Source: a virus. From it: a stretch of 34,330 nt of DNA. Shown here one piece after another: positions 2,557 to 16,549 of the stretch; within the stretch, counting starts at the first letter, position 1, and every line of letters begins with the position of its first letter. A model generated the notes under the pieces. That model did not search any database, was not told the origin of the DNA, and saw nothing but the letters and a program-made list of their open reading frames with translations. The stretch lies in the IMG/VR virus record IMGVR_UViG_3300033981_000873, positions 1-34,330 of that record, one strand, 5' to 3'. A program made the translations under genes and the position numbers.

Positions 2557-2562
2557 ACCTCG

Positions 2563-2759
2563 CCTTCTCCTTGCCGTGCCGTGCCCGGCCCCAGCTTGCC
2601 ATGCCGTGCCTAGCCCTGCCGTGCCGCGCCACGCCTGGCCATCTCCTTGCCTAACCGCACCCAGCCCAGCCCTGGCGCGCCTTGGCTAGCCATCTCCCTG
2701 CCATGCCTGGCCGTGTCCGGCCACGCCATGCCTCGCCGCGCCCGGCCTAGCCTTGCCCT
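2563..2759. repeat. Degenerate NNGCC pentamer repeat, array 1
   Basis: About 195 bases built from five-base units in which GCC is nearly constant and the two preceding bases vary freely (TTGCC, GTGCC, CGGCC, ATGCC, TAGCC and so on). The units are interrupted by CTCC-containing hexamers near 2565, 2641 and 2692, each restarting a run. On the transcribed strand the array reads GGCNN with GGAG at the interruptions. It ends where the stop codon of the 155-residue gene begins. It has no conserved direct-repeat/spacer pattern, so it is not CRISPR. Confidence 0.9.
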
Positions 2760-3227
2760 CTACTTGATCACCGCGACCTCATCGCGCTTGAACTTATTCG
2801 CACCCTTGAGTGCCGCCACCTTGAGCGCCAGCAACTTCACATTCTGCTCATGCTCCATGCGCTGAATGTCGTTCAGGTCATCAGCGCGCACCGTCCGGCA
2901 CAGGTGGCGGAAGTTGCGCTTTATCCCGTCCTCGTGCTTGGCCGCATTGCGAACGTGGTAGGTCGCCGCCTCGGCGTCGGTGTTGATGTGGATTCCGCCC
3001 TTGCGCTGGCACGCCGACAACGGACGGCCGTCGGCCTCGCTCTCGTGCATGATCCAGCCGACCAGCATCATCATGGCGAACGGCCAACGCTTGTCGTCGG
3101 GCCGCACGCCGGTGATCTTGGCGCACTCCGCTTCGGTGAGGTCTTGGCCGCGTTCAAGCGCGGAGACATCCAGCGGGTACGGACTGACATCCGTATCCGG
3201 TTCGGGTTGTGTGGATTCGTCGCTCAT
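2760..3227 (-). CDS. Accessory phage protein of unknown function (155 aa)
   Basis: A 155-residue acidic-to-basic protein starting at ATG 3227 (MSDESTQPEPDTDV). The frame is open further upstream, but that extension is only translated pentamer repeat (Ala/Arg/Gly low complexity), and a GAGGA four bases before ATG 3227 decides the start. The N-terminus is acidic. The middle has MMMLVGWIMHESEADGRP and then CQRKGGIHINTDAEAATY, a pattern (RKGG, then a short beta strand, then TDAEA) I associate with uncharacterised phage proteins. The C-terminus is a helical Lys-rich region. It sits between the two pentamer arrays, after the 208-residue gene, suggesting the two are one accessory unit. No catalytic motif is visible. 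Confidence 0.85.
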   Translation of the reverse strand: MSDESTQPEPDTDVSPYPLDVSALERGQDLTEAECAKITGVRPDDKRWPFAMMMLVGWIMHESEADGRPLSACQRKGGIHINTDAEAATYHVRNAAKHEDGIKRNFRHLCRTVRADDLNDIQRMEHEQNVKLLALKVAALKGANKFKRDEVAVIK

Positions 3228-3250
3228 GTGTTCCTCATGGGTTGATTGTT

Positions 3251-3418
3251 TCCTTCTCCTTGCCTTGCCTCGCCTTGCCATGCCACGCCCTGCCAAGCCA
3301 TGCCGTGCCGCGCCTCCTCCTTGCCAAGCCTCGCCGTGCCGCGCCCGGCCCTGCCCTGCCTGGCCCCCTCCTTGCCTAGCCCCACCAGGCCGTGCCAAAG
3401 CCGGCCCCGGCTAGCCCC
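3251..3418. repeat. Degenerate NNGCC pentamer repeat, array 2
   Basis: About 168 bases of the same GCC-based pentamer found at 2563-2759, in the same orientation. Runs of units restart after CTCC-containing hexamers near 3254, 3315 and 3366. It occupies the whole spacer between the stop of the 208-residue gene and the leader of the 155-residue gene. The two variable bases of each unit differ from unit to unit and the two arrays are not copies of one another, so they share a rule and not a sequence. Confidence 0.9.
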
Positions 3419-4045
3419 TTATGCGAGCACAAACCGCCCGTAGCTGCCGCCCTTCGGCGCACCCGGACGCCAGTCGCCCACACCGACCAGACGGCCAGCG
3501 GCCTCAAGCGACTGCTTCACGGTCGGCAGATCGACGACTTCGGTGTCCATGCAGATCGAGAACGACGCCGACCATTCGTTGAAGATCGGGCGCGTCCGCA
3601 TGACCTTGCTGGTTCCGACCTTGACGGCGCATCGGAAGTGGAACGACTCGTCGCCCGACGCAGCGGCCAGGGACTTGACGCCGGACGCCTTGAACTTGGC
3701 CGGGCCTTCGACGATCACGCCAGCGGAGATGAGCTTTCCGGCTTTGATCTTGCGCGCGCCCTCACGGATGCAGGAGTCCAGCACATGCGCCGGCATGATC
3801 AGCCCGGTGCCATCGGGGACGCTGACGATGCCCTCGGCGTCCACCTTCAGCGGCTTGTCGGTGTAGAGTCCCGCCCACCACTCCAGCAGCGACAGCGTGG
3901 CCAAGTCCTCGTCGGTCTTGTTGCGCTTGGCGCTCTGCGCCTTCATGGCGCGGGCGAACTGGTTGAGCGGGTCGGCGGTCTGTCCGCAGTGCATGAGCAT
4001 CGGGCCGATGCCGTTGATGGTGAAGGTGTGGCTGTTAGTGGCCAT
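3419..4045 (-). CDS. Accessory phage protein of unknown function (208 aa)
   Basis: A 208-residue protein starting at ATG 4045 (MATNSHTFTINGIGPMLMHC). The start is chosen because GGAGG stands eight bases upstream; the longer frame to 4132 lacks such a site. It begins with a short beta strand and a GIGPMLMH turn, followed by a basic helix (AKRNKTDEDLATLSLLEWW), a GLIMPAHVLDSCIREGARK segment and a C-terminus GDWRPGAPKGGSYGRF. I recall similar uncharacterised proteins in other phages sharing the PLLMH-like start and the GDWRP...YGRF end. The glycine-rich C-terminal turn is faintly like RAMP/Cas7-type RNA-binding folds, but that is speculation. The gene has its own promoter-operator candidate (4075-4110) and is followed by repeat array 2. 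Confidence 0.85.
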   Translation of the reverse strand: MATNSHTFTINGIGPMLMHCGQTADPLNQFARAMKAQSAKRNKTDEDLATLSLLEWWAGLYTDKPLKVDAEGIVSVPDGTGLIMPAHVLDSCIREGARKIKAGKLISAGVIVEGPAKFKASGVKSLAAASGDESFHFRCAVKVGTSKVMRTRPIFNEWSASFSICMDTEVVDLPTVKQSLEAAGRLVGVGDWRPGAPKGGSYGRFVLA

Positions 4046-10273: not shown

Positions 10274-11163
10274 GCGCTGACCTTGTTCGGATTCGGGACA
10301 TCGCATCCAGGGATGAACCACGGGTAGTTCATGACCCACCAGTCCATCGATTCATAGCTGCCCGGAGCGTGTGGGCATTCCTTGGCCGCTTGTTCCATCG
10401 TCTGCGCCTTGCCCGGCTCGTGGGCGATCGCCTCGTCCTCCCATGATTTATTCTTGAGATACCGAATGGGGTCTTTCCGGTACTGCTGGTCAGGATTAGC
10501 GGCCACATAGCGCAGGACGCCATCGTAGGCCAGATGCCGGTCCTCGGCGCTCATCCTGTTCCAATACCGCACCACAGCGGCCCGATCGCGCTTCTTGGCG
10601 TAGTCGTTCCAGAACTCATCGAACATGGCCGGCTCGACAGGCTCGTCTGGCTTCGATGGCTTACCGGCAGACTCACCGGGCAAGCACTCGCCCGACTTGT
10701 CGGGCATGTTTAATAGAGTAGGAGTAGGAGTAGGAGTAGGAGTAGGAGGTAGAGGGCAGGCTTGAGCATGGCACTGTGCCGTGCCTAGGGCTGTCATAGT
10801 GCTGGCAGTGTTGCTGTCCAATGGGTTAGGACGCCTCGCCCCCCATTTGCGCTCCGATCCGCTGATGGACTGGTATCGGGTCCAATTCTTGACCACGCCC
10901 CACGCCTTGCCATCCGCTTGTCTGTATGCCAGCAGTATGCCAGCAGTGAGTAGCGCATCTAGCCACTGCTGGACCATGGCGGTGCTGACCTCATCGCGCA
11001 CTCCGAATATGAGCGACCGCAGCACCCTGGCGTCGTACTCAAACACGCCATTGAGGTCACTGTGGCACCAGATGCCAGCAAACAACATGGATGCGCCCAT
11101 AGGCATGTCCGCAAGCTTGGTGTCGGTGAAAAACTCTGGGCGGATGAATCGCGCGCGGGCCAT
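10270..11163 (-). CDS. Replication initiator / helicase loader
   Basis: A 297-residue protein. The N-terminal 115 residues (PEFFTDTKLADMPMGASML, then DLNGVFEYDARVLRSLIF, then VVKNWTRYQSISGSE) match the winged-helix domain of phage replisome organisers. A linker holds five Pro-Thr pairs encoded by a hexamer repeat. The C-terminal part (FWNDYAKKRDRAAVVRYWNR, then KDPIRYLKNKSWEDE) is the small helical domain usual at the end of such proteins. It would bind the origin and load the helicase encoded two genes on. The start at 11163 overlaps the HNH stop as TAATG. The linker DNA may itself be the origin, as in lambda O. Confidence 0.8.
   Translation of the reverse strand: MARARFIRPEFFTDTKLADMPMGASMLFAGIWCHSDLNGVFEYDARVLRSLIFGVRDEVSTAMVQQWLDALLTAGILLAYRQADGKAWGVVKNWTRYQSISGSERKWGARRPNPLDSNTASTMTALGTAQCHAQACPLPPTPTPTPTPTLLNMPDKSGECLPGESAGKPSKPDEPVEPAMFDEFWNDYAKKRDRAAVVRYWNRMSAEDRHLAYDGVLRYVAANPDQQYRKDPIRYLKNKSWEDEAIAHEPGKAQTMEQAAKECPHAPGSYESMDWWVMNYPWFIPGCDVPNPNKVSA
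10690..10747. repeat. Candidate replication origin: palindrome, AT patch and hexamer array
   Basis: Inside the initiator gene lie, in order, the exact palindrome GCCCGAC-TT-GTCGGGC (10690-10705), a short AT-rich patch (GTTTAATAGA, 10708-10717), and five tandem copies of GGAGTA (10716-10744, first copy partial) ending in GGAGG. The array encodes the Pro-Thr linker. Iterons, an AT patch and a palindrome in the linker of an initiator gene recall lambda ori in gene O. Six bases is short for an iteron, so a simple linker microsatellite remains possible. Confidence 0.5.
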
Positions 11164-15300: not shown

Positions 15301-15716
15301 TCCCATTCCCCTTTGCGCTGTAAGGGTGGGTCCGAGTCGCTTCCTCCACCGGACGCAGCCGGCGCAGCCTCCCGGCTCGGCGCTGGCCGTTCGGACTGGC
15401 GCTCGCCGCCGCCCAGTAGGGTCAGCGACTCCACGCGCACTTCCAGGCTGGTCTTGGCCGAGCCGTCCTTGCCCTTGTAGTCGCGTTGGGTCAGTCCGCC
15501 GATGACAAGCACGGCCTTGCCCTTGGTGAGATACTGCGCGACCTTGGCTGCACGCGCGCCCCAATAAGCGCACTTGAACCAGATCGTGGATTCGGCGTCT
15601 TTGTGTTTACTGGTGAAGGCCATCGACCATTCCACGACGGTCTGATCGCCTACGGTCTTGGTCTCGGCATCGCGGCCCAAGTGGCCTGCGAGTGTCAGGT
15701 GGCAGAGATTAGGCAT
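15297..15716 (-). CDS. ssb: Single-stranded DNA-binding protein
   Basis: A 139-residue OB-fold SSB from ATG 15716 (MPNLCHLTLAGHLGRDAET), the start fixed by a TAATG overlap with the nuclease gene. The core continues with VVEWSMAFTSKHKDAES, TIWFKCAYWGARAAKVAQYL, KGKAVLVIGGL and a final EVRVESLTLLGG strand. The tail is Ser/Pro/Gly-rich and ends QRKGEWE, without the acidic DDIPF-like tip of bacterial SSB. It protects single strands in replication and recombination, and lies next to RecT and the exonuclease as in many phage recombination modules. Confidence 0.93.
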   Translation of the reverse strand: MPNLCHLTLAGHLGRDAETKTVGDQTVVEWSMAFTSKHKDAESTIWFKCAYWGARAAKVAQYLTKGKAVLVIGGLTQRDYKGKDGSAKTSLEVRVESLTLLGGGERQSERPAPSREAAPAASGGGSDSDPPLQRKGEWE

Positions 15717-16549
15717 TAGGAAATCACCTCCATCCGACGCATCATCCACTCGGGAATGTCGAGGGTGTCAATGTCTCCATCGTGGTCATCGCTCCAATCG
15801 TCGTCGGCAAACCGATCGGCAATCTCGTCGATGGTATCCTTCGCCTCGACCCATCCGGCACTCAGCGCAGCCTCGGGCATCTTGAACAGCCGCGCACGCG
15901 CCCCGCGCTGCCACTCGACGGCCAGCAGATAGGCGTCGATCCGGTAGCCTGCCACGGCTGCGAGCCACTGGCACAGCGAAAGCTGGCGATGATACCCGTA
16001 GTCGATGGCCTTGCGCCCGAAGTTGCCGAGGTCATCGGTCTTCTTCAAATCGATGTACCACCCGGTCTTGGTCGCCTCGTCCAGCATCAGGAAGTCAGGG
16101 CGCGATTGGAGCGTTAGCCCGTTCGGCAGGACATGGCGCAGCGTGGTCTGCTTGGTGCAGCGCGGGTCGGACAGCATCTCGGCGGCGGTCGCGTGTGCGC
16201 CGACGGCCTTGGCGCAGTCCTCTGCGATCCGCAGCCACTCGGCGGGAACGATCTCTTTGTCCTCATGCTCAGCCTTCCATGCCTTGCCTTCCTTGGTGGC
16301 AAAGCTCATGCCGTCGGGCTTGACCACATACCGATCCATCTTGCCTGGTTCGGTCAGCATGGTGTCCAGCATGCTGCCCTGGCGCATGGCGTCAGACGCC
16401 TCCGGGGCCGGGATCTCGTTGGCGATGTAGCGCAGATGCCACCAGACGGGGCCGTGCTCGCGGAAGTGGCTGACACGGGTGCCGCCGAGGGACTTGGGGC
16501 CGGCGCTGTGGTAGCGGCGGATGTCTTCGGATTGGATGATGTCGGTCAC
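15716..16549 (-). CDS. RecE-type exonuclease (DUF3799-like PD-(D/E)XK)
   Basis: A 277-residue nuclease that pairs with RecT. The start GTG 16549 (VTDIIQSEDIRRYH) overlaps the RecT stop as GTGA. It shows the RecE/exonuclease VIII core: SAGPKSLGG, HFREHGPVWWHLRY, MRQGSMLDTMLTEP, LQSRPDFLMLDE with the first catalytic Asp and GWYIDLKKTDD with the D-x-K pair, then YGYHRQLSLCQWLA. It would chew 5' ends to give 3' single strands for RecT. Length matches the compact phage versions. Confidence 0.9.
   Translation of the reverse strand: MTDIIQSEDIRRYHSAGPKSLGGTRVSHFREHGPVWWHLRYIANEIPAPEASDAMRQGSMLDTMLTEPGKMDRYVVKPDGMSFATKEGKAWKAEHEDKEIVPAEWLRIAEDCAKAVGAHATAAEMLSDPRCTKQTTLRHVLPNGLTLQSRPDFLMLDEATKTGWYIDLKKTDDLGNFGRKAIDYGYHRQLSLCQWLAAVAGYRIDAYLLAVEWQRGARARLFKMPEAALSAGWVEAKDTIDEIADRFADDDWSDDHDGDIDTLDIPEWMMRRMEVIS

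What the first reader, a model, noticed from the sequence alone, without database searches (positions are those of the whole stretch)
2563..2759. Pentamer array with fixed GCC and free dinucleotide
Array 1 follows one rule, NNGCC, for about 195 bases: the last three bases are kept and the first two vary almost randomly. Simple slippage would make identical units. Fixed phase with unit-by-unit variation suggests the array is selected (for example for protein or RNA binding with a five-base period) while avoiding exact repeats that would recombine in a phage encoding RecT.
Basis: partly seen in the sequence, partly recalled or inferred. Interest (0 to 1): 0.72.

Follow-up and report, generated by a model that had tools for sequence, protein, structure and literature searches.

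The report
Phage VIPR guide-RNA arrays
The odd five-base repeats beside this phage's head-packaging genes are the guide-RNA genes of a VIPR system, a recently reported virus-encoded relative of CRISPR, and one of its guides appears to be aimed at the recombination exonuclease gene of rival phages.

Summary
Read on the coding (minus) strand, 2567-2757 and a sister array at 3256-3416 are six back-to-back blocks of 9-14 GGY-NN pentamers, each ending in GGC-A(A/G)-GGAG. The gene upstream (3419-4045) encodes a Cas7-like RAMP. Its family profile matches the solved Vipr protein of phage SUSP1 (E=1e-45), and the predicted fold matches Csm3 and Csf2. The gene between the arrays (2760-3227) is a distant homologue of SUSP1 Vap1. 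This is therefore a VIPR locus (preprint PMC13142463): the NN pairs are guide letters that read DNA with a one-base skip, and GGY is the Vipr-binding scaffold. Of 115 array-bearing viral loci, 86 encode Vipr, against 4 of 89 other viral loci. A relative (78% identical Vipr, different TerL) keeps GGY, spacing and GGAG but changes the NN letters, except in one guide. That guide matches the QxxxY codons of RecE-type exonucleases in 32 other phage contigs, with the skipped base at the wobble position; this phage's own recE does not match. The kind is known; the member, tail-less array and predicted target are new.

The parts
3419..4045 (-). vipr gene (208 aa), Cas7-like RAMP, phrog_4652
   Evidence: phrog_4652 E=2e-42; family profile hits PDB 36pp_D 'SUSP1 Vipr protein' E=1.1e-45; tblastn 33.7% identity to SUSP1; AlphaFold pLDDT 95.9 and Foldseek hits to Csm3/Csf2 subunits
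3368..3416 (-). vrRNA guide A2-a: TA GG CG TT AC CT GG TA + AA-GGAG
   Evidence: 9 GGY/NN units, starts 2 bases after the vipr stop codon
3317..3365 (-). vrRNA guide A2-b: CA AG AG CG GC AC GA TT + AA-GGAG
   Evidence: 9 units, all GGC
3256..3314 (-). vrRNA guide A2-c: GC AC AT TT AG GT AT AA GA AA + AA-GGAG
   Evidence: 11 units, all GGC
2760..3227 (-). vap gene (155 aa), distant homologue of SUSP1 Vap1 (phrog_5926)
   Evidence: 59% identical copy in the same position in L262; relatives next to arrays in ~30 loci; hhalign to the SUSP1/Trine set probability 93%, E=2.9e-7
2694..2757 (-). vrRNA guide A1-a: AA TA CG GC GA AT GT CG AC CA AT + AG-GGAG
   Evidence: 12 units
2643..2691 (-). vrRNA guide A1-b: TA AA GC AG TG TG GC TA + AA-GGAG; predicted target recE QxxxY codons
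   Evidence: 9 units; 52 exact one-skip hits in viral contigs, 32 in RecE-type genes in wobble register
2567..2640 (-). vrRNA guide A1-c: CA GT GC AC AG TA AC AT AA GG CG AC AC + AA-GGAG
   Evidence: 14 units, one GCT
15716..16444 (-). the phage's own RecE-type exonuclease; carries YHRQLSLC where targets have YAHQLAFY, so escapes guide A1-b (context, not part of the locus)
   Evidence: phrog_412 E=2e-31, PF12684 E=5e-9; guide match at the homologous site only 10/16

Best explanation
The arrays are guide-RNA genes (vrRNAs) of a VIPR system with the order vipr - three guides - vap - three guides, probably transcribed in the direction of the minus-strand genes. Vipr, a small Cas7-like RAMP, coats the RNA one subunit per five bases. 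GGY is the protein-bound scaffold, and the free dinucleotides of each block pair with double-stranded DNA, skipping one target base between dinucleotides, so that binding silences the matched gene of a rival phage. Each block ends in a fixed GGC-A(A/G)-GGAG, which I infer marks the 3' end or processing point in this tail-less clade. Shown here: the sequence anatomy, the identity of the protein, its co-occurrence with arrays, and the turnover of guide letters. Taken from the preprint on SUSP1 and P. fulva: RNA binding, the skip rule and silencing. Inferred: one subunit per five bases, that this phage's RNAs work the same way, and that guide A1-b silences recE of competing phages.
For: Window Vipr belongs to phrog_4652, the family to which SUSP1 Vipr itself belongs (E=1.4e-96). 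The profile of 68 relatives hits PDB 36pp 'SUSP1 Vipr protein' at 1.1e-45. The model (pLDDT 95.9) matches type III and IV Cas7-like subunits. Of 115 array-bearing viral loci, 86 encode Vipr nearby, and in 84 of these the RNA sense is GGCNN relative to vipr; among 89 viral loci chosen for other reasons it is 4 (Fisher p=1e-26). Six guides of 9-14 units fit the published 9-16 GGY/NN units (PMC13142463). L262 (Vipr 78%, Vap 59%, TerL only 27% identical) keeps the GGY period and the GGAG ends with new NN letters. Guide A1-b matches 16/16 the codons YAHQLAFY of RecE-type genes in 32 contigs, skip at wobble. The homologous L262 guide matches the same site at up to 19/22, including 6/6 bases outside the search pattern. 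The own genome has no match better than 12/16 to A1-b.
Against: No transcript or binding data exist for this phage. The vrRNA 3' tail described for the SUSP1 clade is absent. Extended targets were not found for guides A1-a, A1-c and A2-c, and A2-a and A2-b were not searched. 29 of the 115 array loci show no Vipr in the DNA held (short contigs or divergent homologues are possible). The Vap homology is distant, and its fold search gave nothing significant. Guide A1-c had a chance-like cluster of its own: about ten of its 16 hits lie in one short gene but do not extend, so a family cluster alone is not proof of targeting.
Confidence: 0.95

Rival explanations
1. A protein-binding RNA or DNA array with no guide content, for example a TRAP-like ring or RecT reading a 5-base period, in which the dinucleotides are mere spacers.
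For: Five-base period with two free bases; the phage encodes RecT.
Against: The array-linked protein is a Cas7-like RAMP whose relative is a demonstrated guide-RNA protein (PMC13142463). One guide keeps 6/8 dinucleotides between two phages while its triplets drift, and its letters match a gene motif in codon register. The triplet is GGY, not the GAG/UAG of TRAP sites (TRAP rule from general knowledge).
Confidence: 0.03
2. Neutral simple-sequence repeat made by slippage or clonal expansion.
For: Pentamer period; a few other contigs carry pure pentamer repeats (L090, L098).
Against: 14 distinct dinucleotides among 58 internal units, fixed block ends and 5k+1 spacing; strong linkage to one gene family; all arrays of a locus lie on one strand.
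Confidence: 0.01
3. The array is coding sequence, an Ala/Gly/Arg-rich N-terminal extension of the Vap protein.
For: An ORF with a TTG start reads through array 2 into vap (2760-3398).
Against: Several frames are open in array 2 because GGCNN rarely gives stops; L262 has different letters there; array 1 has no gene following in frame.
Confidence: 0.01

Closest known systems
VIPR (Viral Interference Programmable Repeat), SUSP1 type II locus, PMC13142463
   Same: Vipr family (phrog_4652), GGY/NN pentamer guides of 9-16 units in gaps flanking vipr, distant Vap1 homologue, phage-encoded.
   Different: Guides are contiguous, separated only by GGAG, with no structured 3' tail; GGC rather than GGT scaffold; vap lies between two arrays; predicted target is recE of other phages, not mentioned in the preprint's main text.
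VIPR loci of Gordonia phage Trine and Cheoctovirus (cluster F1) mycobacteriophages Saal, Brocalys and Donkeykong
   Same: Same Vipr family; in Saal, Brocalys and Donkeykong GGCNN arrays directly upstream of vipr, in Trine directly downstream; Trine has a Vap of phrog_5926.
   Different: About 36% (Trine) or lower identity; other guide letters and boundary motifs.
Class 1 CRISPR-Cas (Cas7 of types III and IV)
   Same: RAMP fold of the backbone protein.
   Different: No CRISPR repeats and no other cas genes seen at the locus; five-base instead of six-base register (period from the preprint's comparison).

Membership tests
VIPR | Vipr protein: single-RRM RAMP of the Vipr clade | tested here: met
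   PDB 36pp Vipr E=1.1e-45; same PHROG as SUSP1 Vipr; RAMP fold. Its place in a Vipr/RAMP tree was not tested.
VIPR | vrRNA of 9-16 tandem GGY/NN units with hypervariable NN | tested here: met
   Six blocks of 9, 9, 11, 12, 9 and 14 units; 58/64 triplets fit GGY
VIPR | vrRNAs in long intergenic gaps flanking vipr | tested here: met
   Array 2 starts 2 bases after the vipr stop; array 1 follows vap
VIPR | vipr-accessory protein (vap) | tested here: met
   Distant homology to SUSP1 Vap1, hhalign probability 93%, E=2.9e-7; DNA-binding function not shown
VIPR | Invariant structured 3' tail on the vrRNA (described for the characterised clades) | tested here: not met
   Consecutive guides are separated only by GGAG. 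The preprint reports variable array architectures across types, so this bears on type, not on being a VIPR.
VIPR | Target recognition by NN with a 1-nt skip | tested here: inconclusive
   Guide A1-b and its L262 homologue fit recE codons; three other guides gave no convincing target
VIPR | Expression of vrRNA and RNP formation with Vipr | not testable with these tools
   Needs RNA sequencing and pull-down
CRISPR array | Identical direct repeats of tens of bases separated by unique spacers | tested here: not met
   Only pentamer-register repeats found at the locus; no Rfam match in the window

The most novel reading that the evidence does not exclude
A tail-less VIPR subtype in which contiguous guides are delimited only by GGAG, and in which phages aim guides at the conserved QxxxY codons of rivals' RecE-type exonuclease while their own recE has diverged at that site. 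The guide is retuned with the rival's allele, and the vipr-guides-vap-guides cassette moves between unrelated phages.
Probability: 0.6. Interest if true: 0.72.

Novelty: new member of a known kind. Interest (0 to 1): 0.6.

Why it matters
It identifies a puzzling class of phage intergenic repeats, present in about a hundred viral contigs sampled here and in cultured Gordonia and Mycobacterium phages, as VIPR guide RNAs. It also gives a sequence-only way to recognise such loci. The predicted recE target would be a new aim for the system: disabling the recombination machinery of competing phages at strongly conserved codons, where the skipped base falls on the wobble position so that third-base synonymous changes give no escape. 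Pairs of related loci with the same guide retuned (window and L262) make guide-target coevolution directly testable.

Tried and rejected
Literature searches for pentanucleotide arrays by pattern words found nothing; only the PDB hit led to the preprint. A pooled search of 335 guides against 2 Mb of held DNA under skips 0-3 gave no excess for any rule, because the target set was too small. Ten-dinucleotide exact target scans for A1-a and A1-c gave nothing. Eight-dinucleotide scans for A1-c, A2-c and A1-a gave 16, 17 and 4 hits whose extensions were near chance. About ten of the A1-c hits lie in one short gene (FIVYLVAT) and were rejected because the neighbouring guide letters do not match. No other guide in the set targets the RecE genes. 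Searches of 369 genomes of the class of L169 found neither TerL nor a real L262 target. The consensus scan found no promoter, and no more terminator-like sites than shuffles, near the arrays. The strong RNA fold energy (z -3.3) was not pursued, since self-complementary GGC/GCC letters could produce it.

Full report
1. Observation. In the window the trinucleotide GCC recurs every five bases through 2562-2757 and again through 3262-3416. Six GCC at exact spacing five occur 17 times in the window and never in 100 shuffles. The window is an IMG/VR virus record and the flanking genes run on the minus strand, so the transcript would read GGCNN. In that sense the two arrays are six blocks, each ending in GGC-A(A/G)-GGAG. 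The distance between successive block ends within an array is 51, 61 or 76, that is 5k+1. Of 64 units, 55 are GGC, 3 GGT and 6 degenerate. The internal dinucleotides use 14 of 16 letters, while the last unit is always AA or AG.

2. How widespread. In 115 loci (the window included) the arrays are degenerate, and all arrays of a locus lie on one strand. The base next to GGC is biased to purine in the RNA, while the outer base is even. BLAST of the region found similar arrays in cultured mycobacteriophages of Cheoctovirus, directly upstream of a gene of phrog_4652. The gene beside the arrays in the window is also phrog_4652.

3. The linked protein. An iterated profile search found a phrog_4652 homologue in 86 of the 115 array loci, in 84 of them on the strand that makes the RNA GGCNN, mostly within 15-800 bases of an array. 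Among 89 viral loci fetched for unrelated reasons only 4 have it, Fisher p=1e-26. Conversely, of the 14 relatives found by protein alone (other than the window's own twin), nine have sense GGYNN runs nearby and none has antisense ones. The family profile (68 sequences) matches one PDB sequence: 36pp, SUSP1 Vipr protein, E=1.1e-45. The AlphaFold model (pLDDT 95.9) matches Csm3, Csf2 and similar subunits.

4. What it is. The preprint PMC13142463 (read) describes VIPR: a RAMP called Vipr and vrRNAs of 9-16 alternating GGY/NN units. The NN letters pair with double-stranded DNA with one skipped base, silencing genes of competing phages. The window locus meets the sequence features: Vipr, six guides of 9-14 units, and a small gene between the arrays. 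That gene is 59% identical in L262, has relatives in about 30 array loci, and is distantly homologous to SUSP1 Vap1 (SUSP1 Vap1 and Trine Vap are phrog_5926). Its predicted fold had no significant match; the best, non-significant hits were winged-helix DNA-binding proteins. The structured 3' tail of SUSP1 guides is absent here; GGAG takes its place. That is a difference of type.

5. L262 has a Vipr 78% and a Vap 59% identical, but a TerL only 27% identical and no hit to the other window proteins tested, so the cassette has probably moved. It has seven guides with the same period and GGAG ends. The NN letters differ, with one exception: window A1-b (TA AA GC AG TG TG GC TA) and an L262 guide (TA AA GC AT TG TG AG TA CC AA GA) share 6 of 8 dinucleotides in register (0 of 300 shuffles), although their triplets have drifted. 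This is what guide content under selection, or common descent with scaffold drift, would look like.

6. A likely target. With the published one-skip rule, A1-b has 52 exact hits in viral contigs, against 16, 17 and 4 for eight-dinucleotide cores of three other guides. Of the 52, 32 read, on the opposite strand and with the skipped base at the wobble position, exactly Y-A-H-Q-L-A-F-Y. The gene is a RecE-type PD-(D/E)XK exonuclease (PF12684, phrog_412), and the codons are those of its QxxxY motif (motif name from general knowledge). The three further dinucleotides of the L262 guide were not in the search pattern. They match the same genes at 3-6 of 6 bases, and four genes reach 19 of 22 overall. 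The L262 guide decodes to S-F-G-Y-L-(H/Q)-(H/Q)-(M/I)-A-F-Y, a plausible allele of the same site; such an allele was not found in named phages. The window phage's own RecE has YHRQLSLC there, matching only 10 of 16. Four of the target contigs carry their own Vipr. I put about 0.75 on recE being the true target of A1-b. A family cluster alone can arise by chance, as the A1-c control shows, but that cluster does not extend and this one does.

7. Limits.

Noticed in passing
L262:605-2290 compared with window 2560-4045: The vipr-guides-vap-guides cassette is shared by two otherwise unrelated phages, beside different packaging genes, which suggests it moves as a unit.
   Followed up: partly
L340, L337, L332, L327: Four of the contigs whose recE matches guide A1-b carry their own Vipr homologue, so rival VIPR phages may target each other.
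   Followed up: partly
L258:3363-3749 (phage Donkeykong gp48): An annotated hypothetical protein overlaps the guide array almost entirely and is probably not a real gene.
   Followed up: no
L258, L259, L260 arrays: Three cluster F1 mycobacteriophages share the outer guides but differ by inserted or replaced inner guide blocks, so guides seem to turn over as whole units.
   Followed up: partly
L133, L136, L259, window: Each phage clade has its own fixed block boundary (RNA GGAG, GGA(A/T)C, CATCGCA, GGCA), a possible clade-specific processing signal.
   Followed up: no
window 2567-2575, 2643-2651, 3256-3264: The block end AAGGAG is also a Shine-Dalgarno sequence; in L262 the same GGCAAGGAG stands directly before the vipr start codon.
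   Followed up: no
L279, L280, L282-L284, L288, L292-L294: Guide A1-c core matches a conserved FIVYLVAT motif in a short protein of ~110 aa in several contigs; the extension does not match, so probably chance.
   Followed up: yes
window 10716-10748: Perfect GAGTAG hexamer repeat, 5.5 copies, inside a reading frame (encodes repeated Pro-Thr on the minus strand).
   Followed up: no
L090:6674-6748, L098:9715-9774: Nearly pure TTGCC and GTGCC pentamer runs, unlike the variable guide arrays.
   Followed up: no
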